NCBI GenBank assembly: GCA_902773295.1
Contig: CACYDT010000018.1
Coordinates: 1 to 52,968 of the forward strand
Direction of reading: 5' to 3'
Length of the DNA: 52,968 bases
Source: an uncultured Veillonellaceae bacterium
Lineage (GTDB): Bacteria > Bacillota > Negativicutes > Selenomonadales > Selenomonadaceae
Below are positions 18,790 to 48,088 of the stretch, one piece after another. The notes beneath the pieces are model-generated. The model was not told where the DNA came from and ran no database searches. It worked only from the letters and a program-made list of their open reading frames with translations. The stretch's first letter is position 1. Each line of letters begins with the position of its first letter. Made by a program: the position numbers and the translations under genes.

Positions 18790-19806
18790 ATGGGGATGGA
18801 CTGGAATGGGAAGCATATCATGGTCACGAGCTGCGGGGGGCTGGGCGATCTCGTCATGTTCACGCCGGCTCTGCGGCGACTGAAAGAAAAGTTTCCTTCC
18901 TGCCATTTGACCTTCCTCTGCCGGGACAATCATCGGGGGATCCTGGAAGGGCTTTCCTATATCGACCGGGTCTTGTGCATCTATCGCGGCAGGTTCCTGG
19001 GGCGCTATCGGGCAGTTCCCTTTCTCCGGCAGATGGATGCGATTGTCTTCACGGACTGGCATCCCGTGCTCCTGCCCTTTGCAAAACTTTTCGGCGTGCC
19101 GATCCGGGCGGGATACGGGCGGAAGGGGCACAGATTCACAGGCTGCCTGACCAAGGAACTCAGGAACAATGTCTTCACCTCGACGGATTATGCGGCGCTT
19201 ACCCAGTCACGGGTGATTTCGGAGGCCTTGGGCATTACCTTGGAGGGAGATATGACGGAGACGGAAGTCTCTCCTTCCGGGGCAAGGGAGAAGGAGTCCG
19301 TGGACCGCTTGCTGGAAGGAGCCGGTCTGGAGGCGGGGAAGCCATATATCCTGCTGAGTCCTTTCGCGGGCATGGAGCAGAGAAACTGGCCGGAGGAGCA
19401 TGCGCGTGAATTCGTCGGAAGAGCCGAAAAAAGGTACGGGATGCCGGTGGTGGTCGCAGGCTCTCCGGGACAAGGGGAGTCTGCGGCGTATATTTCCGGC
19501 CATAACCTCGCAGGAGCGACCACGGTGCCGGAGCTCATCGAGCTTGTCCGGCGGGCGCGCCTCCTGGTCACGCCGGACAGCGGTCCCATGCATATCGCAG
19601 GCGCTGTGGGAACGGCATGTGTGGCGCTTTTCAGCAAGGATCTGCCTTCCCGCTGGGCTCCCAAGCGGAACTGCTTTCCCCTGACACTGGGGATGGAGTG
19701 TTCTCCCTGCGATGACGAAACGGCAAGAGCCTGCCCGCATGTGAAGTGCATGCGCGGGATATCCGCGGATATGGTGATGGAAGCATGTGACAAGTTCCTG
19801 GGGTGA
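18790..19806 (+). CDS. GT9 heptosyltransferase-family enzyme 4
   Basis: This 338-aa protein starts KHIMVTSCGGLGDLVMFTPAL, then LLSPFAGMEQRNWPEEHA and the donor motif TPDSGPMHIAGAVGTA. The Cys tail is CSPCDDETARACPHVKC. It is the fourth GT9 member in 12 kb, so the core probably carries several heptoses, or some members use other sugars. A second ATG at 18796 is possible. The following ligase frame starts in its stop codon. Confidence 0.88.
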   Translation: MGMDWNGKHIMVTSCGGLGDLVMFTPALRRLKEKFPSCHLTFLCRDNHRGILEGLSYIDRVLCIYRGRFLGRYRAVPFLRQMDAIVFTDWHPVLLPFAKLFGVPIRAGYGRKGHRFTGCLTKELRNNVFTSTDYAALTQSRVISEALGITLEGDMTETEVSPSGAREKESVDRLLEGAGLEAGKPYILLSPFAGMEQRNWPEEHAREFVGRAEKRYGMPVVVAGSPGQGESAAYISGHNLAGATTVPELIELVRRARLLVTPDSGPMHIAGAVGTACVALFSKDLPSRWAPKRNCFPLTLGMECSPCDDETARACPHVKCMRGISADMVMEACDKFLG

Positions 19807-19823
19807 GGAAGGAGAACGATTTT

Positions 19824-21065
19824 GTGTGGAAAAACTTGAACATCTATGATCGGTGCATGTTCGGCATCTTGCTGATCGTGATTGTGTCATCGTGCCTTTC
19901 GATGACGGGAGTCGCAGGTGCCGGCATTGGCCTTGGCGCTGTCCTCATGATAGTCCGGGGATGGAAGATGCGGCAATGGCCGAGGCTTGACAAGGGAATT
20001 CTTGGAATCATCGCTGTCTATGTCCTGCTCTGGTCGATTTCCTCTGTATTTTCCTTGGATCCGGGAAGGAGCTTCCATTCTTTGGCCAGTCAGGTGCTCC
20101 GCATGCTGCCCTTGTTCATTGCCATGCTCTGCATCAAGGACAAGTGGCAGCTTCGGTGGATCTGGATCGTCTTTGCCCTGTCAATCCTCGTCGATGATGC
20201 CAAGGCAATCGGGCAGTATGTTGCCGCCGCGGACGAGAATTGGGGGGAGAGGCCCAAGGGCTTCAATCGGTCGCCCACCTTCCTCGCCAGCCATATGCTC
20301 ATGGCGATTCCGGCGATGGTGTTTGCCGCCGGGCGGGATTACATGGGGACTTGGGGGAGGAGGCTGCTTCTGCTTGCCGCAGGGATGGCGCTGCTGACGC
20401 TGCTCTTGTCCGGCACGAGGGGCGGCTGGCTGGCCTTCCTCGGGACGGCCGTCGTTTATGCTCTTTGCGACAAGGCTTATCGGCGCCGTGCGTTCATGGC
20501 CATTTCTTCCCTGCTCGTGGCGCTCTGCGTGGCGGCGGCATGTTCCACGGTCTTCCAGGCGAGGCTGCTGACCATGACGGATCCATCCTTCCAGAGCAAC
20601 AATGAGCGCCTGCTCATGTGGCAGTCGGCGGTTGACATCATCAGGGACAATCCCGTGTTGGGGGTTGGCATGGATCAGTTTGTCATTGTGTACAATACGG
20701 AGTACATTTCGCCCTTGGCGAAGGAACGGCCCCGGGATCCATCGAATCCCATGACGGGCCATGGCCACCCTCATAACAACATCCTGAAGGTCTTCACCGA
20801 GGGTGGTATCTTAGGGCTTTCTGCGTTCCTCTTGCTCCATGGGTATTTTCTCTGGCGGTTCGTCCGCCTTTGGCGGCAGGAGCTTCATCCTTTCCCCTAT
20901 GGTCTCATGGCTGTTCTGATATGGACGGCCCTGCAGCTGGAGGGGATCACGGACACGAATCTGAATCAGGTATCCATCCTGCGGGAATATTGGCTGCTGG
21001 CGGGAATCGCACTGGTGGCGGAGGAGGTGGAACATGGAACGATGGCCGGAATTCATGAGAGTTGA
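19824..21065 (+). CDS. waaL: O-antigen ligase (WaaL/Wzy_C family)
   Basis: This ~413-aa polytopic inner-membrane protein has about 11-12 helices. The Wzy_C landmarks are LLLSGTRGGWLAFLGT near 195-210 and, after a large periplasmic loop, GHGHPHNNILKVFTEGG, whose His-Asn pair is characteristic of the ligase. It would join undecaprenol-linked O-antigen to the completed core in the periplasm. The frame opens at GTG 19803, but AAGGAG at ~19808 favours GTG 19824. It overlaps the next gene by 32 bases. It follows four GT9 genes and precedes the O-antigen block, which supports the call over a polymerase. Confidence 0.82.
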   Translation: MWKNLNIYDRCMFGILLIVIVSSCLSMTGVAGAGIGLGAVLMIVRGWKMRQWPRLDKGILGIIAVYVLLWSISSVFSLDPGRSFHSLASQVLRMLPLFIAMLCIKDKWQLRWIWIVFALSILVDDAKAIGQYVAAADENWGERPKGFNRSPTFLASHMLMAIPAMVFAAGRDYMGTWGRRLLLLAAGMALLTLLLSGTRGGWLAFLGTAVVYALCDKAYRRRAFMAISSLLVALCVAAACSTVFQARLLTMTDPSFQSNNERLLMWQSAVDIIRDNPVLGVGMDQFVIVYNTEYISPLAKERPRDPSNPMTGHGHPHNNILKVFTEGGILGLSAFLLLHGYFLWRFVRLWRQELHPFPYGLMAVLIWTALQLEGITDTNLNQVSILREYWLLAGIALVAEEVEHGTMAGIHES

Positions 21066-22564: not shown

Positions 22565-22600
22565 AAGGCGTGGGCGGTTCATTCGTGCCCACGCCTTTTC
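22565..22600 (+). terminator. Terminator-like hairpin at the waaL/wbaP junction
   Basis: AAGGCGTGGGC and GCCCACGCCTT pair perfectly over 11 bp around an 11-nt loop and run into four T and C. It can end the upstream LPS-core transcript. Because the wbaP promoter is directly upstream, most of it would also be the 5' hairpin of the new transcript. Confidence 0.8.
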
Positions 22601-22629
22601 CATATTGTTTTGCGAGGATGGTTGCCACG

Positions 22630-24090
22630 ATGCAGCAAAGAAATACATTTCGGGAAATGAATTTGAAACGGTTTTTGGACAGGTACTCGGATATCCTCCT
22701 GCCTGCCCTGCTCATGCTTCTGGATTATGCCATGATTGTCTCGGCGGAACGGCTGGCCTATGACCTTCGCCGTTATTGGCTTCCCAATGCCAACCCGGAC
22801 TTTTATATTCCGGCAGTTTACCTTTCTATCATTGTGCCCACGATTTTCCTGTGCTTTTTGAAATCCACGGATGCCCACATGCGCAGCACCCCTTTTTGGC
22901 GGATGGCCCAAAACGTGTTCTGGGCCGTTTTTTACAGTATTCTCACCATTACCATGCTCATGTACTTCGGCAAGGTGGGAGAGGTGGTATCGCGCCTGTT
23001 TGTGGGAATGACGGGCTGCTTTTCCTTCCTGTTCATTCTCACGGCCAGGTATCTCTTCAAGCAGTATATCAACCGGCAGAAACTGTTCCAGGTTCCGGTT
23101 CTTTTCATCGGAGCGGGCAGGACAGCCAAGCTCCTTCTGGATGCCTTCGGCGATGATACCGGGTTTGGCTATCGCGTCATCGGCTTTATCGAGGATCATC
23201 CGGAGAAATCCCCGATTGCCGGCAGGGTTCGCATTTTAGGGCGTTTCAGCAATATCGAGAGAGTGATCCAGATGACCGGGGTGCAGAATGTCATCGTTAC
23301 CGTGCCGGGGCTTTCCGCTTCGGAACAGGTGGCGATGGTCAACCGCATCCAGCCGCTGGTGAAGAATGTCTCCTTTGTCCCCGATCTCATCGGTACGCCG
23401 GTAGGCGCTCTTGATATTGAGACTTTGGTGGACTCGAAGCTCATGCTGCTCCGGGTGCGGAACAATCTTGCCCGCTGGTACAACCGTCTGGCGAAGCGCG
23501 TTTTCGATATCCTGGTCAGTTTTTGCGGGATGGTTTTCGTCCTTCCCTTGGGAATCTTCCTCGCCATCGCGATTTATATTGACAGTCCCGGGCCTATCGT
23601 GTTTGCCCATCGGCGCATCGGCCAGCATGGGAAGGAATTCCCCTGCTACAAGTTCCGCTCCATGGTTCCGGATGCCGATACGGCATTGAAGGCATACTTG
23701 GATGCACATCCGGAGGCGCGGGAGGAATGGGAGCGGGATTTCAAGCTCAAGGACGATCCCCGTGTGACACGGGTGGGGCGGATCCTCAGGAAAACGAGCT
23801 TGGACGAATTGCCCCAGCTCCTCAACGTGCTCAAGGGCGAGATGAGCCTTGTGGGCCCCAGGCCCATCGTGCAGGCGGAAATCGTGAAATACGGGGACCT
23901 CTTCCACGATTTTTGCCTTGTGCCGCCAGGCATCACCGGGATGTGGCAGGTGAATGGCCGCAGTGATACTACATACGAGGAGCGCGTTCAGATGGATTCC
24001 TGGTATGTCAGGAATTGGTCGGTGTGGATTGATATCGTATATCTTCTGAAGACCTTCAAGGTCGTATTTTCCGGGAAAGGCGCATATTGA
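22630..24090 (+). CDS. wbaP: WbaP-type undecaprenyl-phosphate sugar phosphotransferase
   Basis: This 486-aa initiating polyprenyl-phosphate hexose-1-phosphate transferase starts O-antigen on undecaprenyl phosphate. It has an N-terminal set of helices to ~150, a Rossmann-like middle domain (VLFIGAGRTAKLLLDAFG), and the catalytic domain: RVFDILVSFCGMVFVLP.., the SPGPIVFAHRRIGQ..F.CYKFRSM block, the KTSLDELPQLLNVLKG motif, SLVGPRP and PGITGMWQVNGRS. A frame open from 22570 would start inside the terminator-like hairpin and is not credible. ATG 22630 is 12 bases from GAGG; ATG 22618 is the alternative. Galactose or glucose phosphate cannot be told apart here. Confidence 0.92.
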   Translation: MQQRNTFREMNLKRFLDRYSDILLPALLMLLDYAMIVSAERLAYDLRRYWLPNANPDFYIPAVYLSIIVPTIFLCFLKSTDAHMRSTPFWRMAQNVFWAVFYSILTITMLMYFGKVGEVVSRLFVGMTGCFSFLFILTARYLFKQYINRQKLFQVPVLFIGAGRTAKLLLDAFGDDTGFGYRVIGFIEDHPEKSPIAGRVRILGRFSNIERVIQMTGVQNVIVTVPGLSASEQVAMVNRIQPLVKNVSFVPDLIGTPVGALDIETLVDSKLMLLRVRNNLARWYNRLAKRVFDILVSFCGMVFVLPLGIFLAIAIYIDSPGPIVFAHRRIGQHGKEFPCYKFRSMVPDADTALKAYLDAHPEAREEWERDFKLKDDPRVTRVGRILRKTSLDELPQLLNVLKGEMSLVGPRPIVQAEIVKYGDLFHDFCLVPPGITGMWQVNGRSDTTYEERVQMDSWYVRNWSVWIDIVYLLKTFKVVFSGKGAY

Positions 24091-26241: not shown

Positions 26242-27051
26242 ATGCATTATTTTCGGGCATTGGTATCCCTTCTGGGAGATATTTTCCGGAACAGGGCATT
26301 GCTCTGGCAGATGACGAAACGGGATTTTCACCAGCGGTATGTTGGTTCCTATCTGGGGATTCTTTGGGCCTTCATCCAGCCGGCTGTCACCGTATTGGTC
26401 TTCTGGTTCGTGTTCCAGGTGGGGTTCAAGTCGCAGCCCGTGGACAATTTCCCTTTTATTCTCTGGCTGGTCTGCGGCATGTTCCCCTGGTTCTTCATCT
26501 CTGACAGCCTGCAGGGAGCGGCCAATGCCATACTTGACAGCAGTTTTCTCGTGAAGAAGGTTGTTTTCCGCGTGGAACTCCTTCCCATGGTGAAGCTCAT
26601 GTCGGCCTTTCTGGTGCATGGCTTCTTTGTCCTCGTGCTCTTCCTCATGTTTGCGGTATACGGCTATCCGGTGTCCGTCTACAATCTCCAGGTCCTGTAC
26701 TACGCAGCGGCCATGTTCTGCCTCTGCATCGGAATATCCTGGCTGACCTCGGCGCTGACGGTGTTCCTTCGCGATGTGGGCCAGCTCGTGGCCATGGTGC
26801 TTCAGATTGCCTTTTGGTCCACGCCGATTTTCTGGAGCCTCAAGATGATTCCCGAGGAATATCATTTCCTCCTGAAGATGAATCCTGCCTACTATATCGT
26901 GGAAGGATATCGCCAGAGCTTCATCTACCATGAATGGTTCTGGCAGCATATGACATTGACTTCTTATTTCTGGGGACTCACCATCGTGGTGCTCTTCGTC
27001 GGCGCCCTCGTGTTCAAGCGCTTGCGGCCGCATTTTGCAGATGTTCTGTGA
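26242..27051 (+). CDS. wzm: Wzm: O-antigen ABC exporter, permease
   Basis: This 269-aa ABC-2 permease has six membrane helices. The N-terminal DIFRNRALLWQMTKRDFHQRYVGSYLGILW is the typical interface and coupling segment of O-antigen exporters. A later P-I-F-W-S..MIP turn precedes the last helices. It pairs with the ATPase 11 bp downstream to move completed undecaprenol-linked O-antigen across the inner membrane. GGAGG just ahead of ATG 26242 fixes the start over an earlier frame start at 26182 inside the GT2 gene. Confidence 0.92.
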   Translation: MHYFRALVSLLGDIFRNRALLWQMTKRDFHQRYVGSYLGILWAFIQPAVTVLVFWFVFQVGFKSQPVDNFPFILWLVCGMFPWFFISDSLQGAANAILDSSFLVKKVVFRVELLPMVKLMSAFLVHGFFVLVLFLMFAVYGYPVSVYNLQVLYYAAAMFCLCIGISWLTSALTVFLRDVGQLVAMVLQIAFWSTPIFWSLKMIPEEYHFLLKMNPAYYIVEGYRQSFIYHEWFWQHMTLTSYFWGLTIVVLFVGALVFKRLRPHFADVL

Positions 27052-27062
27052 AGGAGATCGGA

Positions 27063-28400
27063 ATGGCTGATGACATTGCAATAGAAATAAAGGAACTTAC
27101 GAAAGTATATAGATTATATGATCGTCCCGTAGACCGGCTGAAGGAAGCATTGCTTCCTTTCCACAGGCGCTACAGCCGGGACTTCTATGCCCTGCGGGAT
27201 GTCAGCCTTTCCATCCGCAGGGGAGAGACCGTGGGGTTCATCGGGCGGAACGGCGCGGGGAAATCCACCCTGCTCAAGATCATCACGGGAGTGCTGACAC
27301 CCACGGGCGGCACGATCAAGGTCCACGGGCGCATTGCCTCGCTGCTGGAACTGGGAGCCGGGTTCAACCCGGAGATGACGGGCATCGAAAATATCTACAT
27401 GAATGGCATTGTCATGGGCATGTCCCGGGAGATGATGGACGAGAAGCTGGAGGATATCATCGCCTTTGCCGACATCGGGGATTTCATCCATCAGCCGGTG
27501 AAGATGTACTCCAGCGGTATGTTCGCCCGTCTGGCCTTCGCTGTGAACGCCTTTGTGGAGCCGGACATCCTCATCGTGGACGAGGCCCTTTCCGTGGGGG
27601 ATGCTTTCTTTCAGGCGAAATGCATCGACCGCATGAAGCACATGCTGGACGATGGCGTGACCGTCCTCTTCGTGAGCCATGATATCGGCGCCGTGCGGAG
27701 CCTGTGCCAGCGGGGGATTTTCATGGTGCATGGGCAGGTCGTCTTTGATGGTCCCAGCAAGGAGGCCGTGGAGAAATACTTTGCCGCGAGAGTGCGCTCG
27801 GAGCAGACCGTGGTGGAAGCGCTCCCCGATGGGGAGGAATCGGCAGGAATACCGGAGGGCGGCATCTGGCACGGCCCGAATGAGCAGTTCCTGAAGAATG
27901 CCGCCTATGACCGCACGCAGAACGGCAAGGCGGAGTTCCTCAATGTGCAGCTCCTGGACGAGCGGGGGCGGGAACTGCCGCAGGTGGAGAACGGGCAGAA
28001 GGTATGCCTGCGCTTTGCAATCCAGGCCCATGAGGATATCCCCTTGGTGGGGTTTGCCTACCATATCCGCAGTGCGAATGGCGTGGAGGCCGTCTACTCC
28101 GATACGGGGGTGGACAATCTTCCCATGTTTTCCCTGAAAGCAGGGGGATGCTATATCCTCGAATGGAAATTCTGCATGGATCTGCAGGAAGGGAGCTACA
28201 ACGTGGCGGCCTGCATGTCGATTCCCCTGGATGTCACGGTTGCCAAGGTGGATTTCTGCGATTTCGTTCCCTGCGCGGTGCAGTTTTCCGTGGTGACGGA
28301 TCCGCAGCGCCACCTGTATGGCTATGTGCATTGGCACAATGATGTGACGATTTCCCGTTTCACGGAGAATGGACGAATGGAAAGGATTGTTGGAACATGA
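27063..28400 (+). CDS. wzt: Wzt: O-antigen ABC exporter, ATPase with C-terminal glycan-binding domain
   Basis: This 445-aa protein has an N-terminal ABC ATPase: Walker A GRNGAGKST at 61-69, signature YSSGM at 149-153, Walker B ILIVDEA at 169-175 and the switch His in FVSHD. A C-terminal extension of ~180 residues begins near 265 and is rich in beta strands (..FLNVQLLDERGRELPQ.., YHIRSANGVEAVYSDTG). In Wzt proteins this domain recognises the O-antigen non-reducing-end cap, so export here should be coupled to a capping modification. It overlaps the aminotransferase gene by four bases. Confidence 0.94.
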   Translation: MADDIAIEIKELTKVYRLYDRPVDRLKEALLPFHRRYSRDFYALRDVSLSIRRGETVGFIGRNGAGKSTLLKIITGVLTPTGGTIKVHGRIASLLELGAGFNPEMTGIENIYMNGIVMGMSREMMDEKLEDIIAFADIGDFIHQPVKMYSSGMFARLAFAVNAFVEPDILIVDEALSVGDAFFQAKCIDRMKHMLDDGVTVLFVSHDIGAVRSLCQRGIFMVHGQVVFDGPSKEAVEKYFAARVRSEQTVVEALPDGEESAGIPEGGIWHGPNEQFLKNAAYDRTQNGKAEFLNVQLLDERGRELPQVENGQKVCLRFAIQAHEDIPLVGFAYHIRSANGVEAVYSDTGVDNLPMFSLKAGGCYILEWKFCMDLQEGSYNVAACMSIPLDVTVAKVDFCDFVPCAVQFSVVTDPQRHLYGYVHWHNDVTISRFTENGRMERIVGT

Positions 28401-29542
28401 GCGAGAAGATCGAAGGGTTTCGCGAGCCCATCTATGTGACACGGCCGGTGTTCCCGACCATCGAGGAAGTGACGGAGAAACTGGAGGATATCTGGCGGGC
28501 GAAATGGCTCACGAACAACGGCCCGCAGCATCACAAGCTGGAGGAGGAACTCACGGAGTACCTCAAAGTTCCGTACCTCAATCTCTTCAACAACGGCACG
28601 ATTGCCCTTATGGTGGCCTGCCAGAGCCTCCGGCTCATGGGGGATGTCATCACGACGCCCTTCACCTTTGCGGCGACGCCCCATGTGCTGTCCTGGAACA
28701 ATATCCGCCCTATCTTCTGCGATATCGATCCCGTTACCATGAACATCGACGCGGACAAAATCGAGTCCATGATCACGCCCCAGACGACGGCAATCCTGGC
28801 CGTCCATGTCTTCGGAACCCCGTGCGATGTGGAGAAAATCCAGTCCGTGGCAGACAAGTACGGGCTTCGCGTCATCTACGATGCGGCTCATGCCTTTGGC
28901 GTGGAAATCGACGGGAAGGGCATCGGGAATTTCGGGGATATCTCCATGCTGAGCTTCCATGCGACCAAGCTCTACCACACCGTGGAAGGAGGGGCGCTTG
29001 TCCACAAGGACAAGAATCTCAAGGAGCGCATCGACCTGCTGAAGAATTTCGGCATCAAGAACGAGGAAGAGGTCGTCATGCCCGGCATCAACGGGAAAAT
29101 GAACGAGATTCAGGCGGCTGTGGGCCGCATCATGCTCGGCTACGTGGAAGGGGAACGGGAGAAGCGCATTGCCCTTGGAAAAGTCTACGGCGAGGAACTC
29201 GGAGAAGTCCCCGGCATCACGCTCATGCCGAAGGCAGGGGGCAACGTGCGCCTGAACCATCAGTATTATGTCATCCGCATAGAGGAGGAAGCTTTTGGCT
29301 GCTCCAGGGATGAGGTGTATGACCGTTTCAAGGAATACAATGTCTACGCGAGGAAGTATTTCCATCCACTCTGCAGCGAGTATACCTGCTATCGCCAGCT
29401 TTCCTCTGCGGCACAGGGAAAACTTCCCGTGGCGGAGAAGGTCGGCAGGGAAGTCCTTTCCATGCCGATGTACGGCGCTTTGGCGGCAGAGGATGTCAGG
29501 AGGATCTGCCGGATTCTCAAGAGCTTCTATGGGAAGAAATAG
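28397..29542 (+). CDS. DegT/DnrJ/EryC1-family sugar aminotransferase
   Basis: This 381-aa PLP enzyme aminates a keto sugar nucleotide. The PLP lysine is K191 in LSFHATKLYHTVEGGA, and D162 in IYDAAHAFGVE contacts the ring nitrogen. TNNGPQHHKLEEEL and NNGTIALM are N-terminal hallmarks. It resembles VioA/FdtB/RffA-type enzymes that make 3- or 4-amino-deoxyhexoses. The neighbouring acyltransferase and ACP module suggest the amine is then acylated. No dehydratase (RmlB-like) is in the window, so the keto sugar must come from elsewhere. Confidence 0.92.
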   Translation: MSEKIEGFREPIYVTRPVFPTIEEVTEKLEDIWRAKWLTNNGPQHHKLEEELTEYLKVPYLNLFNNGTIALMVACQSLRLMGDVITTPFTFAATPHVLSWNNIRPIFCDIDPVTMNIDADKIESMITPQTTAILAVHVFGTPCDVEKIQSVADKYGLRVIYDAAHAFGVEIDGKGIGNFGDISMLSFHATKLYHTVEGGALVHKDKNLKERIDLLKNFGIKNEEEVVMPGINGKMNEIQAAVGRIMLGYVEGEREKRIALGKVYGEELGEVPGITLMPKAGGNVRLNHQYYVIRIEEEAFGCSRDEVYDRFKEYNVYARKYFHPLCSEYTCYRQLSSAAQGKLPVAEKVGREVLSMPMYGALAAEDVRRICRILKSFYGKK

Positions 29543-29552
29543 GGGGATGTTC

Positions 29553-30188
29553 ATGCTGGATATCGTGATTGCAGGAGCCGGCGGCTGCGGGCGGGAAGTC
29601 TATGAGATGGCGAAGGAAACATATTCCCCGGAGGAATTCCGCATCAAGGGATTCCTTACGGATATCCCCACGGATTTGGATGACTATCCCGATATTCGGA
29701 AAGAGGCAGATATCGTAGGATCGATCCGTGACTATGAGGTGCAGGAGAATGACAGGTTCCTCCTTGCCATCGGAGATGCCGCAGGGAGGAAGAAAGTGGC
29801 CGGAATATTGAAGGGGAAGGGAGCGAAATTCCTGAATCTCATCCATCCCAGCGCGATCTGTTCCGCCTATGCAACTTTGGGAGAAGGGATCATCCTGTAC
29901 CGTATGGCGGGCATCAGCGACCATGCCAAGGTTGGCGACTTCTGTCTCATCAATTCCCTTGGCTCTGTCGGGCACGATGTGGTTTTGGGGGCCTGCACGG
30001 TGGTGTGTCCTTTTGCTGCCATTGGGGGAAATGCGAAGATCGGCGAGGAATGCTTTATCAGCACACATGCGACGATCAGTCCGAAACTGACGGTAGGCGC
30101 GAGGAGCTGCGTTTCGGCGAATTCCTTTGTCGCGCGCAACGTGCCGGAGGATTCCTTTGTCATGGGAGTTCCGGCGAAGAACTATTAA
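29553..30188 (+). CDS. NeuD/PglD-type N-acyltransferase (left-handed beta-helix)
   Basis: This 211-aa protein has an N-terminal Rossmann-like domain (DIVIAGAGGCGREVYEMA) that binds the nucleotide sugar. The C-terminal hexapeptide-repeat domain contains the catalytic His in LGSVGHDVVLG and the repeats IGGNAKIGEE, ISTHATISPKLTVG, with closing VMGVPAKNY. Family members acylate the free amine of UDP- or dTDP-amino sugars, usually from acetyl-CoA. The ACP gene starts 38 bp downstream, so an acyl-ACP donor is possible here. AGGGGG six bases before ATG 29553 sets the start. Confidence 0.9.
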   Translation: MLDIVIAGAGGCGREVYEMAKETYSPEEFRIKGFLTDIPTDLDDYPDIRKEADIVGSIRDYEVQENDRFLLAIGDAAGRKKVAGILKGKGAKFLNLIHPSAICSAYATLGEGIILYRMAGISDHAKVGDFCLINSLGSVGHDVVLGACTVVCPFAAIGGNAKIGEECFISTHATISPKLTVGARSCVSANSFVARNVPEDSFVMGVPAKNY

Positions 30189-30226
30189 TAGCCATTATAT
30201 ATTATATTAGGAAGGGATTTGAATTT

Positions 30227-30442
30227 ATGGAAAAATTTTTGGAGAATATTGCGGATATCATTGATTCAGAGAAGGAAATCCTGCCGGAAACGCGTCTGGA
30301 GGATATCGAGGAATGGGATTCCCTGAGCATCGTGAGCTTCTTGGCCATGGCAAACGTGGAATACGGGAAAAACCTTCGGAAGGTTGACTTTGCCGGTGCT
30401 GAGACGATCCGGGATCTCTATGACATTCTCATGAGAAAGTGA
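30227..30442 (+). CDS. Dedicated acyl carrier protein
   Basis: This 71-aa acidic four-helix carrier protein has S32 in EEWDSLSIVSFLA as the phosphopantetheine site. It is smaller than housekeeping AcpP, and the motif is WDSLS in place of DSLD, as in carrier proteins of specialised pathways. The AGGAAGGGA site precedes ATG 30227. It is followed by KAS III, reductase and KAS III genes, which together look like a short acyl-chain assembly line. Confidence 0.9.
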   Translation: MEKFLENIADIIDSEKEILPETRLEDIEEWDSLSIVSFLAMANVEYGKNLRKVDFAGAETIRDLYDILMRK

Positions 30443-30452
30443 GGCGGTTGCT

Positions 30453-31499
30453 GTGCTGCTTGAGTTTGGCGATGCCTGTCTCAAGGGAATCTGTTCCGTC
30501 GTGCCGAAGGGAATCCGTCGAGCTATAGATATGGAAGGCATCTCGGAGCGCGATGCGAAGCGCTTGGCGAAGAACACAGGCTTCGAGCAGTTCCATATCG
30601 CAGAAGAGGGGAAGACGGCAGCGGATTACTGCGCTCTTGCTGCGGAGCATCTGCTGGAGAAGCTGGGGGTGGATCCCCAAACGCTGGATGCCTTGGTGTT
30701 CGTCACCCAGTCCCCGGATTATATCGCGCCTGCGACAAGCGGCCTTCTCCATGACCGCCTGGGCCTTCGCCGGGATGCCATGGTGTTTGACATCAATCAC
30801 GGATGCCCCGGCTTCGTCTATGGAATGTTCCAGGCATCGGCGTTGGTTCGTGCGGGAGCGCGCCGGGTCTTGCTCTGCGCGGGGGACACGGTTTCCAGGT
30901 ACGCCTCGCCGGAGGACAGATCTACGTATTTCGTCTTCGGCGACGCAGCGGCAGCCGCTTTGGTGGAGGCAGGGGAACAAAGGTCTGCCTACAGCTTCTA
31001 TACCGATGGCAGCCGCTTTTCCGCATTGGGCATACGCGATGGCGGGATGCGGCACATGTTCAGCGAGGCATCCCTGGTGCCACATGCGGATGAACAGGGG
31101 AATATCCACAGCGATTACCAGATCCACATGGACGGTGCGGAAATCATGACCTTTTCCCTCAATGTCGTGCCGAAGATGATAGAGGACTTGCTGGCAGGCG
31201 TTGGGCTGGCCAGGGAGGAGATCGATATCTTCGCCCTCCATCAGGCCAATAAGCTCATTGTGAAGAGCATCGCGAAGAAACTGCAGGTCCCGCCGGAAAA
31301 GGTTCCCTTCGAGGCAGCCGGGTTCGGCAATACGAGCCTCGCTTCCATCCCGCTCCTGCTCTCCGTCCTGTATGGGGATGCCCCCGCAGACGGGAGAGCA
31401 GGACATGCGGTTCTCTGCGGTTTTGGCGTCGGCCTTTCGGCGGCGGCGGTGTATCTTTCGTTGAAGGATGTAGAGATTATGAGGTATATAGAACGATGA
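30453..31499 (+). CDS. KAS III-like beta-ketoacyl-ACP synthase 1
   Basis: This 348-aa thiolase-fold enzyme has an intact Cys-His-Asn triad: C118 in NHGCPGFVYG, H263 in ALHQANKLI and N293 in GFGNTSLAS. It starts at GTG 30453 behind GAGG. KAS III enzymes condense a short acyl-CoA with malonyl-ACP. In this context it would build a 3-oxoacyl chain on the neighbouring ACP. It lies in a four-base overlap with the reductase gene. Being one of two KAS III-type genes in the cluster, it is unlikely to be the housekeeping FabH. Confidence 0.88.
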   Translation: MLLEFGDACLKGICSVVPKGIRRAIDMEGISERDAKRLAKNTGFEQFHIAEEGKTAADYCALAAEHLLEKLGVDPQTLDALVFVTQSPDYIAPATSGLLHDRLGLRRDAMVFDINHGCPGFVYGMFQASALVRAGARRVLLCAGDTVSRYASPEDRSTYFVFGDAAAAALVEAGEQRSAYSFYTDGSRFSALGIRDGGMRHMFSEASLVPHADEQGNIHSDYQIHMDGAEIMTFSLNVVPKMIEDLLAGVGLAREEIDIFALHQANKLIVKSIAKKLQVPPEKVPFEAAGFGNTSLASIPLLLSVLYGDAPADGRAGHAVLCGFGVGLSAAAVYLSLKDVEIMRYIER

Positions 31500-32224
31500 A
31501 TGTGAGTTTTGACTTTCAGGGACAGACGTTCCTTGTGACCGGAGCATCCTCCGGCATCGGCAGGGAAACGGCGCGGGAGCTTCTGTCGGCAGGGGCGGCA
31601 GTCCTCGGCATGGCGCGCCATTTTCCGGAGGCGGATACATTGGCAGAGGAGTTTCCGGAGAGATGGTTCCCAAGATGCGTGGATGTGACCCATTTCGATG
31701 AGCTGGAGCAGGTGATTGCCGATTTCGTCGGAGAGCATGGGAAGCTCCATGGCTGCGTGCATTCAGCGGGGATGGTGACGATGCTCCCTGTGAATGTATG
31801 GAATCCGGAGCTCGCCCACAAGCTCATGGATGTGAACCTTTGGGCGGCCTCCGCCCTCCTGAAAATCCTATGGAAGAAGAAGTACCGCCAGGAAGGGCTG
31901 GCCCACGTGTTCATTTCCACGGTCAGCGTACATCGGGCACAGAAGAGCCTCAGCATCTATGCCGCGAGCAAGGCGGGCATCGAGGCCCTCGTGCGGACGG
32001 CAGCGCCGGAGCTTGCGACGCGCGGGCAGCGGGTCAACAGCGTCTGCCTGGGATGGCTGAAGACGAACATGACGAAGGATGCGGAGTATGTGGTGCCGGA
32101 CTTCCCCTTGGGGAATGGCTCCACAGAGGACGCTGCAGGGATGATCCTCTATCTTCTGAGCGATCGCGCCCGTTGGATCACGGGAGCGAATTTCGTGGTG
32201 GATGGCGGTTTCCTGCAGATGTGA
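31496..32224 (+). CDS. Short-chain dehydrogenase/reductase, FabG-like
   Basis: This 242-aa classical SDR has the cofactor motif TGASSGIGRE (15-24), HSAGM at 89-93, and the catalytic Ser in FISTVSVH with Y155-A-A-S-K159. The C-terminus WITGANFVVDGGF is typical of 3-oxoacyl-ACP reductases and related alcohol dehydrogenases. Between two KAS III genes it probably reduces the 3-oxoacyl-ACP product to a 3-hydroxyacyl group. A sugar reductase role cannot be excluded. Confidence 0.88.
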   Translation: MNVSFDFQGQTFLVTGASSGIGRETARELLSAGAAVLGMARHFPEADTLAEEFPERWFPRCVDVTHFDELEQVIADFVGEHGKLHGCVHSAGMVTMLPVNVWNPELAHKLMDVNLWAASALLKILWKKKYRQEGLAHVFISTVSVHRAQKSLSIYAASKAGIEALVRTAAPELATRGQRVNSVCLGWLKTNMTKDAEYVVPDFPLGNGSTEDAAGMILYLLSDRARWITGANFVVDGGFLQM

Positions 32225-32241: not shown

Positions 32242-33273
32242 ATGGGAAAATCAGCCTGCATCAAGGCAATCGCGACTTATCTGCCTCCTAAGGTGGAAAC
32301 GAACGAGAGGGAGGATCAGCGTTTCATCAAGAAGTTGGGCATACAGGAGCGCCATTTGGCAAGCAAGGAAGAGTCTGCCGGGGATCTGGCGTTTGAGGCG
32401 GCGGAAAATCTTTTCCGGCAGTACGATATCCGGCGGGAGGACATCGATTTCATCCTGCTCTGCGTCCAGCATCCCGATTACCAGATGCCCACGACGGCAT
32501 GCGAACTCCAGTCCCGGCTGGGAATTCCAAATTCCTGCGGCGCACTCGACTACAACCTTGGCTGTTCCGGTTACAGCTATGGACTGGCGCTCGCCAAGGG
32601 GCTCATGGAGACGGGGCTGGCAGAACGGGTGCTTCTCCTGACTTCCAGCGTCTATCTGAAGTACATCAACAAGGAGGATCATGCCTGCTATCCCCTCTTT
32701 GGCGACGGCGCGACGGCAACGTATCTTGCGATGGAGGAAGGGGAAGCTCCCTTTCTCCATTCCTTTGTGTTCGGCACGGACGGTTCCCGCTATGACAAGA
32801 TCATCGTACCGGCGGGGGGCAGCCGCAATATGCCGAGGGAAACGCCGGAGGTCTTTGAGACGGACGAGCGGGGGAACACGCATTCTAACTATGAGGTCGC
32901 TATGGATGGCACGGCCATCACATACTTCACATTGCGGGAAGTCCCGCCGTTGGTGGACCGGGTTCTGGAAAAAGCGGGACTCACGAGAGAGGATCTGGAC
33001 TACTGCGTGTTCCATCAGGCCAACAAGTTCATGCTGGACTATGTGCGAAAAAAGTGCAAGCTCCTGGATGTACCCTTCCACAATGACATCGAGAGGATCG
33101 GAAACACCGTATCGGGAACGATTCCTTTCGGGATAGAGGAAATCCTGGAGGAACATGACGGGAAAAATCTGAAGAATGTCCTTCTGGCAGGCTTCGGCGT
33201 GGGACTTTCCTGGGTGGGATGCATTGCGGATCTGAGCAGGATGATGGACAGGAAATATACTAGAGAGCGTTAG
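32242..33273 (+). CDS. KAS III-like beta-ketoacyl-ACP synthase 2
   Basis: This 343-aa protein has the triad C108 (NLGCSGYSYG), H258 (VFHQANKFM) and N288 (RIGNTVSGTIP). It is clearly related to the first KAS III, including the shared DERGN-HSxY block near 210-217, so the pair may be an old duplication. It may extend the chain, act as a second starter enzyme, or work as an acyl transferase as some KAS III relatives do. Its last codons (..YTRER, stop) are encoded by the left edge of dispersed element copy B, so insertion of that element probably redefined the C-terminus. Confidence 0.87.
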   Translation: MGKSACIKAIATYLPPKVETNEREDQRFIKKLGIQERHLASKEESAGDLAFEAAENLFRQYDIRREDIDFILLCVQHPDYQMPTTACELQSRLGIPNSCGALDYNLGCSGYSYGLALAKGLMETGLAERVLLLTSSVYLKYINKEDHACYPLFGDGATATYLAMEEGEAPFLHSFVFGTDGSRYDKIIVPAGGSRNMPRETPEVFETDERGNTHSNYEVAMDGTAITYFTLREVPPLVDRVLEKAGLTREDLDYCVFHQANKFMLDYVRKKCKLLDVPFHNDIERIGNTVSGTIPFGIEEILEEHDGKNLKNVLLAGFGVGLSWVGCIADLSRMMDRKYTRER

Positions 33274-33385: not shown

Positions 33386-36300
33386 ATGCCGAAGGTGAGT
33401 GTGATCCTGTCTTCCTACAACCATGCAGATTATGTGGCGGAAGCAATCGAAAGTGTTCTGGGGCAGACGTTCCGGGATTTTGAACTTCTGGTTTATGATG
33501 ATGGAAGTACGGATGGCAGCGCGGATGTAATACGGTCCTTCCGGGACGAGAGAATGACGGCGTTTCTCTACGAGGAGAACAGGGGGCCCTTGGAGGCATC
33601 CCGGGAAGCGGCTGCAGCCGCGCGGGGGGAATATATTGCCGTGCACCATTCGGATGATGCATGGGAGCCGGACAAACTGGAGAAGCAGGTGCGGTTCCTC
33701 GACGAGCATCCGGAGTACGCGGCATGTTTTACCCTGGTGAAATACATGGACGAGAACAGCGAGGAGTATGTTCCGCCGGAGGGAAGCTTCTACCGGACGG
33801 TTTTTCAGCAGCCGAACAGGACGCAGGCCGAATGGCTGCGCCATTTCTTTTTCCATGGAAACTGCCTGTGCCATCCGAGCCTCCTCATACGGAGGGAGAT
33901 GTATGAGGCCCATGGCCTCCTCAGAACTGAGGGGATCTGGCAGCTTCCGGACTTCTGCATGTGGGTGAAACTCTCCCTCCATGAGCATATCTACGTCTAC
34001 CAGGAGCCGCTGACCCGCTTCCGCCTGCGTCGGGGGAAGCAGACGCAGACGGGCGGGGAGCGGGCGGATGTGTCCATCCGCTCCCAGTTCGAGCTATACC
34101 AGATCCTGAAGCTGTACACGGGAATCACCCAGAGAAAGATGATGATGGAAGTATTTCCGGAGTCGGCGAAATACCTGAGCGAGGAGAGCGGGAGCATCCT
34201 CTTCTCCCTTGCCATGGAAGCCAGGAGCGTGGGATCTTCGGCCTATCAGATGCTGGCGCTGGATATCCTCTATGGGCTGGTGAGGGACAAGGATACAGCC
34301 GGGGAACTGGCAGAGCGTTATCACTATACATGGAGGGATTTCGTCTCGGACACGGGGAAGGAGGATGTGTTCCACACGGCGAGCCTCCTGACCTATCTCC
34401 ATCTGATGGTCTATGCGGATGATGGCAGCGGAACGGAACGAACCGTGGGCGATGGCATGGTCTATGTGTCCTCCGGGGGCGAGTTCTTCGCGGAGTTCCC
34501 CCTGGAAGACAGCCTCGGGGGCATCCGGGCCGTCGCTGTCGATATCTGCGACAACACCTACAGGAAACTGGCCATTACCGGCATCCGTCTGGATGGGCAG
34601 CCCGTGGACTTCTCCCCGGTGAACGGGAATGGGAAGGAAGGCCCCTATGACGTGTTCCTGACGGTGTGCCCGCAGTATTCCGCCGTGTGCCACGGGGAGG
34701 AAGCTTCGTCCGTGGCGATTTCCGGCATCGTAGATTTTGAGGAATTGCTGGATGTCCGGAAAATCCTGTATGACAAGGATCTGGAACTGGTGCAGCGGCA
34801 CATGGAGCTGGAGCAGCGGGATCTTGAGCTGGAACAGCGGAACATGGAACTGGCGCAGCGGAATCGGGATCTGGGACAGTGCCGCCGGGAACTGGACAAG
34901 AAAAAGGCGGAGCTGGAGAGCAGGGATCGGGAACTGGAGCAGAGAGACCAGGAGCTTGCCGCCATCAAGGCGACACGCGGCTGGAGAGCGCTCCAATGGG
35001 CCAGGGATGTCCGGGATTCCATCAAGAGCGGCGTGAAGGGAACGGCTTACCGGTGCTTGGCGACTCCCGGCGTAAAGTGCCTGGCGCGCGAAATGGACGG
35101 AGCCTTGCGGCAATATATGCCCTCCGTCCATCAGAAAGTCTACCTTCCCTTGCTGGCGAGGGCGAAGCAGCATGTCATGTCCTGCAGCGTGGGAGAACCC
35201 GTGATAGAGGAAGGGAAGATACCTTTCTGGCATTTCCATCCGGGAAAGACGGGGGAATATGCTCCTCTCGTGAGTATCATCGTGCCGAACTACAATCATG
35301 GGGCATATCTCAGGGAGCGGCTGGATTCCATTTACAGCCAGACCTATGGGAACTATGAGGTCATCCTGCTGGATGACTGCTCCACGGACGACAGCCGGGA
35401 CATCCTGCGGGAATACGGGGAAAAGCACCCGGACACGACGCGGCTGGCCTTCAACGAGAAGAACAGCGGCAATGTTTTCGCCCAGTGGAAGAAGGGGCTT
35501 TCCCTGGCAAAGGGGGAGCTCATCTGGATTGCGGAAAGCGATGACTGGTGCGAGACGGGATTCCTTCAGCGCATGGTCGCGGGATTCAGGGATGAGGCCG
35601 TCATGCTGGCTTTCTGCCGCAGCGACTTCATGCAGGACGGTGTCCGTACCTATACGACGGAGGACTATCTGAAGGATCTTCCGGGCTTCGACTGGGGAAC
35701 GTCCTTCTGCATCACGGCAGCCCAGGCTGTGGCTCATGCCTTTTCCATCAAGAACATCATTCCCAATGTGAGCAGCGCGGTCTTCCGGAAGCCTCTCGCC
35801 TTTTCCTCGGAACTGCAGGAGCTTTGGGAGGGGATGCGCCTCTGCGGCGACTGGGCCTTCTATATGGACATCATGAAAGGAGGCTGCCTCTTCTATACGC
35901 CGGAGACCACGAATTTCTATCGGGTGCATGCCTCCAGCACATCTCTGAAGATTCAGAAGGAAGCCCGCTATTATGAGGAACATGAGAGCATTGCGCGCTT
36001 CCTTGCCCGGAACTACCGTGTTCCGCGTTCCAGCCATGAACGCCATCTGCAGCAGTTGGAGGAACATTACCTTTCCTATTTTGGCGGGAAGGATCCGGAG
36101 GATGTGGCCGAGTGGTTCCGCATCCCGGAAATCCTCAAAGAGAAGCGGCGCCCCAATGTACTCATGTGCCTGTTCTCCATGTCCATCGGAGGCGGGGAGA
36201 CCTTCCCTTTGGCGCTGGCCAATGAGCTGAAACGGGACGGGATTCCCGTTGCGGTTTTGGACTTCCAGATGTCGGAGGACATGCCGGGCATCCGCTCGAA

Positions 36301-37243
36301 TCTTCGGGCAGATGTGCCTTACATCCGCCTGAAGGAGACAGAAGGACTTGCGACCGTTGCATGGCAGCTGGGGGCGGATATTGCCCATTCCCATCATGGC
36401 AGCGTGGATGAGGCTGTCCACTATGCCGTTCCGCAGGTGCCGGGGCTGCGGCAGGTCATCACGCTCCATGGCATGTATGAGTCCACGGAGGAGCAATACC
36501 TGAAGCCTCTTCTGGACAAGGTGAGGGAGACCTGTGCGGCTTTTGTCTACATTGCCGACAAGAACCTCGTTCCCTTCCGGGAATACGGCGGCTTTGACTC
36601 CGGGAAGTTCATCAAGATCGGCAACGGCCTTGCTTATTCCACGGGGACACCGATACCGCGCGGGGAACTTGGGGTGCCGGAGGATGCCTTCCTGCTCTGT
36701 GTGGTCAGCCGTGCCATCCCGGAGAAGGGCTGGCAGCCGGCCATGGATGCCGTCTTGCTGGCGAGAGAGAAAGCAGGGCGGGACATCCACCTCCTTCTCG
36801 TGGGAGGCGGGGAGATGTATGACCGCCTTCTGGGGAAGGTACCGGACTGCATCCATCTCATGGGCTTCCAATCCAATGTGCGGGACTATTTCGCTACGGC
36901 GGACATGGGGCTTCTTCCCTCCGAATTCAAGGGGGAGAGTTTCCCGCTGATGATCATCGACTGCCTCTTCTGCGGCAAGCCCGTCATTGCCAGCGACCTC
37001 GGGGAATCCAGGAATCAGCTTCTCGATGAGTCCGGCAACCCGGCAGGGGAAATCTTCGAGCTTGTGGATGGCAAGGTGCCCGTGGAGACCTTGGCGAACA
37101 TGATCGTGAAGGCGGCAGATAATGAGGCGTATTATGAGATATTGAGGCAGAGGGTTGCCTCGGCTTCCGAGAAGTTCCGCATGGAGCGGGTAGCTGCGGA
37201 CTACATGAAGGTATATGAAAGCGTGTTGGGAGCGGAAGGATGA
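33386..37243 (+). CDS. Three-module glycosyltransferase: GT2 - coiled coil - GT2 - GT4
   Basis: This 1285-aa cytosolic protein has a GT2 domain (1-~230: VSVILSSYNHADYVAEAIES, LLVYDDGSTDGSAD, HHSDDAWEPDKL), a linker, and nine seven-residue repeats (467-529). A second GT2 domain (~625-880) has VSIIVPNYNHGAYLRERLDS, ILLDDCSTDDSRD and IAESDDWCETGFL. A C-terminal GT4 domain (~918-1285) has LFSMSIGGGETFPLALANEL, VSRAIPEKGWQPAMDA and LLPSEFKGESFPLMIIDCLF, the last with the E-x7-E-like donor site. Acidic metal sites look intact in both GT2 domains. Such fusions assemble several linkages of a repeat unit. Acceptor and sugars are unknown. It follows dispersed element copy B. Confidence 0.88.
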   Translation: MPKVSVILSSYNHADYVAEAIESVLGQTFRDFELLVYDDGSTDGSADVIRSFRDERMTAFLYEENRGPLEASREAAAAARGEYIAVHHSDDAWEPDKLEKQVRFLDEHPEYAACFTLVKYMDENSEEYVPPEGSFYRTVFQQPNRTQAEWLRHFFFHGNCLCHPSLLIRREMYEAHGLLRTEGIWQLPDFCMWVKLSLHEHIYVYQEPLTRFRLRRGKQTQTGGERADVSIRSQFELYQILKLYTGITQRKMMMEVFPESAKYLSEESGSILFSLAMEARSVGSSAYQMLALDILYGLVRDKDTAGELAERYHYTWRDFVSDTGKEDVFHTASLLTYLHLMVYADDGSGTERTVGDGMVYVSSGGEFFAEFPLEDSLGGIRAVAVDICDNTYRKLAITGIRLDGQPVDFSPVNGNGKEGPYDVFLTVCPQYSAVCHGEEASSVAISGIVDFEELLDVRKILYDKDLELVQRHMELEQRDLELEQRNMELAQRNRDLGQCRRELDKKKAELESRDRELEQRDQELAAIKATRGWRALQWARDVRDSIKSGVKGTAYRCLATPGVKCLAREMDGALRQYMPSVHQKVYLPLLARAKQHVMSCSVGEPVIEEGKIPFWHFHPGKTGEYAPLVSIIVPNYNHGAYLRERLDSIYSQTYGNYEVILLDDCSTDDSRDILREYGEKHPDTTRLAFNEKNSGNVFAQWKKGLSLAKGELIWIAESDDWCETGFLQRMVAGFRDEAVMLAFCRSDFMQDGVRTYTTEDYLKDLPGFDWGTSFCITAAQAVAHAFSIKNIIPNVSSAVFRKPLAFSSELQELWEGMRLCGDWAFYMDIMKGGCLFYTPETTNFYRVHASSTSLKIQKEARYYEEHESIARFLARNYRVPRSSHERHLQQLEEHYLSYFGGKDPEDVAEWFRIPEILKEKRRPNVLMCLFSMSIGGGETFPLALANELKRDGIPVAVLDFQMSEDMPGIRSNLRADVPYIRLKETEGLATVAWQLGADIAHSHHGSVDEAVHYAVPQVPGLRQVITLHGMYESTEEQYLKPLLDKVRETCAAFVYIADKNLVPFREYGGFDSGKFIKIGNGLAYSTGTPIPRGELGVPEDAFLLCVVSRAIPEKGWQPAMDAVLLAREKAGRDIHLLLVGGGEMYDRLLGKVPDCIHLMGFQSNVRDYFATADMGLLPSEFKGESFPLMIIDCLFCGKPVIASDLGESRNQLLDESGNPAGEIFELVDGKVPVETLANMIVKAADNEAYYEILRQRVASASEKFRMERVAADYMKVYESVLGAEG
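34784..34972 (+). repeat. Nine 21-bp repeats encoding coiled-coil heptads
   Basis: Nine consecutive 21-bp units encode seven-residue units of the type ELEQRDL, ELEQRNM, ELAQRNR and ELDKKKA. They form the spacer between the first and second GT2 modules. The constant Leu at the second place and regular Glu/Arg pairs predict a coiled coil or single alpha-helix that acts as a ruler or dimer stalk. Confidence 0.85.
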
Positions 37244-38743: not shown

Positions 38744-38857
38744 GTGCCTGCGATCGGAAATCCCCCTTCCGGGGGCAGCCAAAATAGCTTTGGAAGCAGG
38801 CGGGACGCGGCTTGGATAAAAAATGAAAAAGAAAATGAAAAAAGATGGAAATTCCTC

Positions 38858-38886
38858 TTTACATCATTTGGGTTCTGTGCTATTAT
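38858..38886 (+). promoter_or_regulatory. Promoter of the RTX surface-protein gene
   Basis: TTTACA (38858-38863), exactly 17 bp, then TATTAT (38881-38886) with TGC in front as extended -10. An A-rich tract (38821-38845) lies upstream like an UP element. The ~100-nt leader contains a CGCCGC-TTG-CGGCG hairpin (~38911-38924). All fit strong expression. Confidence 0.7.
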
Positions 38887-38991
38887 TACATACGAAGTTT
38901 TGATACTTTATGTTCGCCGCTTGCGGCGGGCAGAGGCGATGTAGCTACGGCTACTAGAATTCATTTATATTTTGAGGAGGTTGTTTTATTT

Positions 38992-48087: not shown

Positions 48088-48088
48088 T

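What the first reader, a model, noticed from the sequence alone, without database searches (positions are those of the whole stretch)
33386..37243. Three glycosyltransferase modules spaced by a nine-heptad rod
GT2, nine 21-bp repeats, GT2 and GT4 in one chain could assemble several sugars in sequence. The regular rod could set the distance between active sites or a chain length, as coiled coils do in some O-antigen chain-length systems (e.g. WbdD).
Basis: partly seen in the sequence, partly recalled or inferred. Interest (0 to 1): 0.5.

Follow-up and report, generated by a model that had tools for sequence, protein, structure and literature searches.

The report
Sugar-chain builder with built-in rod
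One bacterial protein joins three sugar-adding enzymes with a helical rod; in related bacteria the rod varies widely in length, often in whole seven-residue steps, which fits a measuring stick for a surface sugar chain, though that job is not yet tested.

Summary
ORF 33386-37243 (1285 aa) carries GT2, nine heptads (34772-34960), GT2 and GT4. The 21-bp period is purely protein-level. The protein fuses two units that mostly occur apart in relatives: GT2-beta-rod-W-helix (N-module) and GT2-GT4 (C-module). It sits in an ABC-transporter O-antigen locus (WaaL, WbaP, Wzm, Wzt with carbohydrate-binding domain), right behind a viosamine-type acylated-amino-sugar gene set. N-modules tend to keep KASIII/DegT neighbours and a matching Wzt while the polymerase-like partner changes (GT2-GT4 or RgpF, fused or adjacent). 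Best reading: a WbbB-like polymerise-cap-measure protein. The N-terminal GT2 would add a terminating N-acyl-4-amino-4,6-dideoxyhexose, Wzt would recognise it, and the rod would set its distance from the membrane-side polymerase. In 39 measurable proteins (window included) the rod spans 32-156 residues; 13 of 21 distinct lengths share one phase modulo 7 (P about 7e-7). Length varies freely but often in heptad steps. Capping, chain-length effect and oligomeric state are untested; the nearest relative is out of phase. New variant of a known kind.

The parts
33386..37243 (+). fused three-glycosyltransferase rod protein, 1285 aa
33386..34135 (+). N-terminal GT2 (GT-A) domain, res 1-250; proposed chain terminator (inferred)
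   Evidence: Pfam; AF2; D38 D39, S89-D90-D91, D189 invariant in 57 sequences (catalytic meaning recalled)
34391..34732 (+). beta domain, res 336-449, diverges much faster than the GT domains
   Evidence: AF2; 34.8% identity vs 82% for the GT2 in nearest relative
34754..34969 (+). continuous helix / rod, res 457-528
   Evidence: AF2
34772..34960 (+). nine heptads, Leu 9 of 9 at one position
34976..35032 (+). helix with RGWR (SWKxTxPLR-type) motif ending the N-module, res 531-549
   Evidence: ends most stand-alone relatives
35243..35965 (+). second GT2 domain, res about 620-860 (C-module)
   Evidence: Pfam; AF2; 34 sequences
36158..37240 (+). GT4 (GT-B) domain, res about 925-1285 (C-module)
   Evidence: Pfam; AF2; Foldseek BshA and other GT4-type enzymes
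26242..27051 (+). Wzm, ABC-2 permease
   Evidence: PF01061
27060..28400 (+). Wzt, ATPase with C-terminal Wzt_C carbohydrate-binding domain
   Evidence: PF14524 77.9 bits, cut-off 30.4
28397..29542 (+). DegT aminotransferase, DesI/VioA-like
   Evidence: PF01041; best NCBIfam TIGR04427 323.8 bits, under its 650 cut-off
29541..30188 (+). NeuD/PglB/VioB-type sugar N-acyltransferase
   Evidence: TIGR03570 168.9 bits, over cut-off 160.8
30191..30442 (+). acyl carrier protein
   Evidence: PF00550 22.9 bits, over cut-off 20.8, in the longer ORF 30005-30442; no NCBIfam match
30453..31499 (+). KASIII-like ketoacyl synthase a
31496..32224 (+). SDR reductase (FabG-like)
32242..33273 (+). KASIII-like ketoacyl synthase b; a homologue lies directly upstream of the N-module in 38 of 56 relatives
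22570..24090 (+). WbaP-type initiating phosphoglycosyltransferase
   Evidence: TIGR03022 454.4 bits over 403
19803..21065 (+). O-antigen ligase (Wzy_C)
   Evidence: PF04932

Best explanation
A single-chain O-antigen assembly protein of the WbbB layout. The C-terminal GT2-GT4 pair extends the chain near the membrane (inferred). The N-terminal GT2, held at the far end of a helical rod, adds a non-reducing-end cap, most likely an N-acylated 4-amino-4,6-dideoxyhexose made by the genes just upstream (DegT, VioB-like, ACP, KASIII, SDR) (inferred). The Wzt binding domain reads the cap and lets the chain out (inferred from precedent). The rod sets how long a chain must be before it can reach the cap site (inferred). 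Shown here: domain layout, locus, co-occurrence, partner swapping, and rod lengths that vary often in heptad steps. Not shown: any activity, cap identity, chain length or oligomeric state.
For: Layout GT2-beta-rod-W-helix then GT2-GT4. WaaL, WbaP, Wzm and Wzt with Wzt_C in the same locus. Viosamine-type gene set just upstream, matching in kind the P. syringae vioA/vioB/vioS/vioR/acp set whose product caps a rhamnan and attenuates its elongation (PMC3927599 passages). rmlA and rmlB over cut-off in the own genome. 50 of 56 N-module genomes carry a close Wzt (E 1e-110), against 9 of 133 without the N-module; outside genus g13 7 of 7 against 4 of 116. G028 keeps a Wzt binding domain 75.2% and DegT 85% identical although its neighbour is RgpF; L036, with the same GT2-GT4, has 75.0% and 90%. 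In the relatives scanned, C-module or RgpF is fused or adjacent in most. Rod phase: 13 of 21 distinct lengths equal 2 mod 7, P 6.8e-7; largest class that big in 0 of 20,000 simulations; periods 3-6 and 8-12 give P at least 0.02.
Against: No activity, product or chain length is known. The nearest relative L036 (rod 62) is out of phase, as are 11 other of 39 proteins. The position that would pair with the Leu in a coiled-coil core is polar in all nine heptads (D,H,D,N,N,R,K,D,D), so a weak coiled coil or a single helix is possible. The W-helix moment is not above chance in the window protein (P 0.09). The C-module stands alone on other contigs in many g13 genomes that also have an N-module, so it may not be the O-antigen polymerase. 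KASIII-b homologues occur in 36 genomes without the N-module. The sugar gene set is not intact everywhere: L036 shows no KASIII-a, and in g13 its parts lie on different contigs. DegT misses the DesI equivalog cut-off.
Confidence: 0.55

Rival explanations
1. All three GTs, including the N-terminal one, build the repeat unit or a side branch; the rod is an oligomerisation and membrane-recruitment scaffold with no ruler role.
For: All three GT domains are about equally conserved between window and L036 (82, 80.5, 79.5%). Length varies from 32 to 156 even among fairly close relatives. RmlT and TarS, among the good structural matches of the N-module, are wall-teichoic-acid GT2 enzymes (their function and oligomerisation through accessory domains recalled).
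Against: N-module, KASIII/DegT neighbours and Wzt tend to travel together while the polymerase-like partner changes. The heptad-phased lengths point to a continuous rod, though not to a ruler as such.
Confidence: 0.27
2. The N-terminal GT2 is the cap transferase, but chain length is set by something else (transporter or enzyme ratio); the rod only tethers.
For: In K. pneumoniae O2a chain length follows transporter:biosynthesis complex stoichiometry (PMC11231755 passages). Rods as short as 32-37 residues exist.
Against: A ruler role of the coiled coil is established for E. coli O9 and K. pneumoniae O12, and the other K. pneumoniae terminator proteins also carry a coiled coil (PMC11231755).
Confidence: 0.14
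3. The repeat is a neutral, slippage-driven linker with no structural constraint.
For: 42-bp repeats at 88-91% DNA match in the L069 and L098 rods.
Against: In the window there is no DNA-level excess; 13 of 21 distinct lengths keep one heptad phase although sequences have diverged; AF2 gives a 72-residue helix with block-mean pLDDT 78-97.
Confidence: 0.04

Closest known systems
WbbB, Klebsiella pneumoniae O12 (PMC11231755: abstract, passages and section 13 part 1 read; the WbbB paper itself not held)
   Same: One polypeptide with N-terminal terminator, coiled coil and two C-terminal polymerase GTs; ABC transporter with binding domain
   Different: WbbB modules are GT99/GT102/GT103 and the cap is Kdo; here GT2, beta domain, GT2 and GT4, and the predicted cap is an acylamino-dideoxyhexose
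WbdD + WbdA, E. coli O9a (PMC5082667 passage, PMC11231755 passages; the WbdD ruler paper not held)
   Same: Terminator on a rod with a membrane-side C-terminal region; polymerase recruited separately; resembles stand-alone N-module relatives
   Different: WbdD is a kinase-methyltransferase, not a glycosyltransferase; its rod is about 20 nm and trimeric, here about 10.7 nm (72 residues x 0.1485 nm, own arithmetic with a recalled rise) and of unknown oligomeric state
K. pneumoniae O7 ORF6 (PMC11231755 passages)
   Same: Terminator module, extra CBM domain, coiled coil, two C-terminal GTs in one protein; some orthologues end after the coiled coil
   Different: Terminator is a methyltransferase-kinase; the C-terminal GTs are both GT2
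Pseudomonas syringae viosamine island, VioT (PMC3927599 passages)
   Same: vioA, vioB, vioS, vioR, acp set with a large (1,173 aa) transferase that caps a glycan; the cap attenuates elongation
   Different: Flagellin glycan, no ABC transporter mentioned in the passages read; a vioM methyltransferase, not recognised among the window genes scanned; VioT domains not compared
RmlT / TarS GT2 enzymes (PDB 8bz7, 5tz8)
   Same: GT2 fold superposes; RmlT was solved with TDP-rhamnose
   Different: Good superposition covers residues about 1-330 only; no long rod recalled in them

Membership tests
Rod-type terminator proteins of ABC-dependent O-antigen assembly | extended coiled coil | tested here: met
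   72-residue helix 457-528, block-mean pLDDT 78-97; nine heptads, Leu 9 of 9; coiling itself not shown
Rod-type terminator proteins of ABC-dependent O-antigen assembly | Wzm/Wzt transporter with C-terminal binding domain in the same locus | tested here: met
   PF01061 and PF14524 over cut-off
Rod-type terminator proteins of ABC-dependent O-antigen assembly | catalytic terminator at the far end of the rod from the polymerase | tested here: inconclusive
   layout fits; activity unknown
Rod-type terminator proteins of ABC-dependent O-antigen assembly | membrane-side amphipathic helix after the rod | tested here: inconclusive
   helix 531-549; shuffle P 0.09 in window, 0.35 in L036, 0.008-0.13 in five stand-alone relatives
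Rod-type terminator proteins of ABC-dependent O-antigen assembly | rod length sets chain length | not testable with these tools
   needs polysaccharide analysis
WbbB orthologue | GT99 N-terminal Kdo transferase with GT102/GT103 | tested here: not met
   Pfam gives GT2, GT2, GT4 over cut-off; GT99/102/103 assignment from PMC11231755
Viosamine-type cap pathway | vioA, vioB, acp, KASIII, SDR genes together | tested here: met
   VioB-type family over cut-off
Viosamine-type cap pathway | DegT enzyme specific for dTDP-4-keto-6-deoxyglucose C4 | tested here: inconclusive
   best NCBIfam DesI but 323.8 of 650 bits; best PDB sequence 2po3; rmlA/rmlB present

The most novel reading that the evidence does not exclude
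A naturally evolving tape measure: in Selenomonadaceae a cap-transferring GT2 sits on a rod that grows and shrinks often by whole heptads (in some species by fresh 42-bp duplications), so that each species resets its O-antigen length without touching catalysis. The cap would be an N-acyl-4-amino-4,6-dideoxyhexose, so capping would be done by an ordinary GT2 enzyme, unlike the ABC-dependent O-antigen caps described in the passages of PMC11231755 that I read (kinase/methyltransferase, Kdo transferases, pyruvyltransferase).
Probability: 0.38. Interest if true: 0.72.

Novelty: new variant of a known kind. Interest (0 to 1): 0.56.

Why it matters
The coiled-coil ruler idea rests on few worked examples (E. 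coli O9 and K. pneumoniae O12 in the papers read). Here one protein family offers 21 natural rod lengths over one conserved N-terminal GT2, including two relatives 89.6% identical in the N-module that differ by exactly one heptad (L094/L104). That makes the ruler claim directly testable by comparing chain lengths among species. It also gives a gene-context route to predict the cap sugar from draft genomes.

Tried and rejected
Recent DNA expansion as cause of the window repeat: rejected. Fixed nine-heptad ruler: rejected, since lengths vary. Rod as mere inter-GT spacer: rejected, since most stand-alone N-modules end with it. Link between identities of DegT and Wzt binding domain: Spearman 0.88 in 8 genomes, but the ATPase domain also correlates with DegT (0.74), so not used as proof. 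Correlation of rod-length difference with N-module identity is weak (rho -0.08). Genome contigs gave one relative only. Literature (listings only): searches showed me no paper on this Selenomonadaceae family, on viosamine caps in ABC-dependent O-antigens, or on heptad-stepped rod lengths in glycosyltransferases. One search listed 20 of 28 papers and 20 of 164; the library holds open-licence papers only, and the WbdD ruler and WbbB papers were not held.

Rows dropped before counts: one search gave 64 N-module ORFs; 7 that repeat a place already held were dropped, 57 kept (window included). Rod lengths: 39 of 57 had a readable W motif; 18 did not (degenerate motif, contig edge, or very long tail). 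by itself gave 25 of 39 in phase, with five anchors misaligned (L073, L107, L080, L115, L117); I corrected these by hand, typed the 39 values into (27 of 39 in phase) and had that script check that a G or A stands at each anchor (0 failures). Four of the 18 could be measured with a looser motif: L066, L070, L074 = 51 (in phase), L076 = 92 (out of phase), i.e. 30 of 43 proteins and 13 of 22 distinct lengths in phase (own arithmetic). L064 is cut by a contig end after the rod. In one search the g13 set was taken as handles G097-G161 plus G014 (66); G129 and G140 were not printed in any table I saw. Three Wzt counted there (G124, G130, G142) matched only the ATPase part; one search aligned them into the binding domain. 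Three counted in genomes without the N-module (G069, G093, G208) matched to residue 370-385 of 446 only.
Full report
WHAT IS THERE. The ORF at 33386-37243 (+) encodes 1285 aa. Pfam finds two GT2 stretches and a GT4-type domain. AlphaFold2 models from alignments of 57 N-modules and 34 C-modules give: a GT-A-like domain 1-~240, helices to 325, a beta domain 336-449, one continuous helix 457-528, a break, a helix 531-549 with the RGWR motif, a low-confidence stretch at 547-562, then helices and two further GT domains. Mean pLDDT is 87.8 and 86.5. The nine heptads are residues 463-525 (34772-34960). Leu fills one position 9 of 9 times, while the position that would pair with it in a core is polar 9 of 9 times. 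The 21-nt period exceeds all of 10,000 codon shuffles but not synonymous-codon shuffles (6182 of 10,000 reach it), so the repeat is kept at protein level only. Typical GT2 and GT4 residues are invariant in the alignments (D38/D39, S89-D90-D91, D189; in C-module numbering D122/D123, S177-D178-D179; the GT4 motif reads E643...D651 in all 34) (motif meaning recalled).

LOCUS. The window is an LPS locus. It holds four GT9 heptosyltransferases, heptose-pathway-type genes (labels recalled), an O-antigen ligase, WbaP (over its NCBIfam cut-off), Wzm and Wzt with a Wzt_C domain, then DegT, a VioB-family acyltransferase (over cut-off), ACP, KASIII, SDR and a second KASIII, then the rod protein. The own genome is a 2.46-Mb draft. 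The only named relative found is a Selenomonadaceae MAG, UBA3796 (L036). rmlA and rmlB are present over cut-off elsewhere in the genome. The Pseudomonas syringae viosamine island has the same kinds of genes (vioA, vioB, vioS, vioR, acp) plus vioM and a 1,173-aa transferase. [quoted passage not shown]

IT IS A FUSION OF TWO UNITS. In 189 family genomes, 58 match at E 1e-60. N- and C-modules mostly lie in separate genes. Full fusions are seen in G000, G002, G105 and G108. In G123 the two open frames lie side by side, overlapping by about 10 bp. Most stand-alone N-modules end right after the rod and the SWKxTxPLR helix, so the rod is the tail of the N-module; L096 and L097 lack the motif and L103 has an acidic tail instead. 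In many relatives the N-module is followed by an RgpF-type protein. By Pfam this is fused in L068, L092 and L099, and separate but adjacent in L088, L089 and L096; L100 has a two-stretch GT2 protein next door, L091 a different GT pair in the same chain, and L101 no GT neighbour. The other N-modules were not scanned for partners by Pfam.

WHAT TRAVELS WITH THE N-MODULE. Immediately upstream lies a KASIII-b homologue in 38 of 56 relatives (window excluded), DegT in 2, Wzm in 1, something else in 13, contig edge in 2. A close Wzt (E 1e-110) is present in 50 of 56 N-module genomes and 9 of 133 others; outside genus g13, 7 of 7 against 4 of 116. KASIII-b: 48 of 56 against 36 of 133, so it is less specific. 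The full set is not intact everywhere: L036 shows no KASIII-a, and in g13 Wzt and parts of the set lie on other contigs than the N-module. G314, from another family, has Wzm, Wzt, DegT and an N-module in one locus, with hardly any rod by eye. In G028 the neighbour is RgpF, yet its Wzt binding domain is 75.2% and DegT 85% identical to the window's. L036, which shares the GT2-GT4 unit, has 75.0% and 90%. So there the binding domain and sugar pathway track the N-module and not the polymerase-like partner. This is two genomes, not a statistical test. Between window and L036 the three GT domains are 80-82% identical, the beta domain 34.8%, the rod 33%.

ROD LENGTH. I measured residues from the last conserved Gly/Ala of the beta domain to the W motif in 39 of 57 N-modules. 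Lengths run from 32 to 156. 27 of 39 proteins and 13 of 21 distinct lengths equal 2 mod 7 (binomial P 6.8e-7 on distinct lengths; 0 of 20,000 simulations give so large a class; the P on proteins is inflated by kinship). Periods 3-6 and 8-12 give P of at least 0.02. Twelve other stretches between conserved anchors show no such stepping, but they have only 1-6 distinct lengths each; the longest control, 258-447, has 11 distinct lengths with at most 3 in one class. The window rod (86) is in phase. L036 (62), L088 (62) and ten more are not. L094 and L104, 89.6% identical in the N-module, differ by exactly 7; L092, 86% identical to L104 and 84% to L094, differs from them by 11 and 4. Among 64 protein pairs at 70% identity or more, 45 differ in length and 16 of those by a multiple of 7, so close pairs alone do not show the rule strongly. 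L069 and L098 rods carry 42-bp repeats at 88-91% match, a visible route for two-heptad steps.

READING. In ABC-dependent O-antigen assembly of the terminated kind, an enzyme at the far end of a coiled coil caps the chain, and the transporter's binding domain accepts only capped chains. The rod is an established ruler in E. coli O9 and K. pneumoniae O12, and in O12 all modules are in one protein, WbbB (PMC11231755, abstract, passages and section 13 part 1; PMC5082667 passage). The present protein has that layout with different enzymes. I therefore propose N-terminal GT2 = cap transferase, C-terminal GT2-GT4 = extension, rod = ruler. Layout, locus and co-occurrence are shown; every activity is inferred.

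DOUBTS. The C-module sits alone in many g13 genomes that also have an N-module elsewhere; in L008 its neighbours look like sucC and lpxD by eye. It may thus serve another step there. The W helix is not significantly amphipathic in the window protein. The heptads have one hydrophobic core position only. Solved folds that match the N-module best are SpsA, RmlT, TarS/TarP and chondroitin polymerase; these say GT2 but not which sugar. A scaffold role without ruling remains open at about one in four.

VERDICT. Real, well placed and more than a curiosity. It is a new variant of the known terminator-rod systems, with an unusual natural length series that would let the ruler idea be tested.

Noticed in passing
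window 38845-41469: Secreted-looking RTX/BapA-prefix-like protein (weak Pfam matches, below cut-off) with a 9-bp repeat at 39298-39335, followed by two GT genes and ABC/HlyD-type secretion genes at 44609-50212 (judged by eye).
   Followed up: no
window 52735-52872: 27-bp tandem repeats at the contig end, perhaps part of another RTX-type gene (by eye).
   Followed up: no
window 16775-17680: A DUF535 gene inside the LPS block (Pfam PF04393, 1e-78).
   Followed up: no
window 6503-7537 and 12358-13350: Two PfkB kinases and four GT9 heptosyltransferases in one core-LPS block.
   Followed up: no
L069 8635-8917 and L098 9812-9979: 42-bp tandem duplications inside rods of related proteins.
   Followed up: partly
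L008 1435-3756: Stand-alone C-module between genes that look like sucC and lpxD by eye; a conserved LPS role outside the O-antigen locus is possible.
   Followed up: partly
L088 11688-12419: KASIII-b homologue matches in three separate pieces, as if frame-shifted, while a second copy lies at 2512-3495.
   Followed up: no
window 34391-34732 versus L036: Beta domain diverges far faster than the GT domains around it (34.8% vs about 80%).
   Followed up: partly
L143 9224-12217: N-module from another family with almost no rod, joined to a different C-terminal region without a Pfam match at E 0.001.
   Followed up: partly
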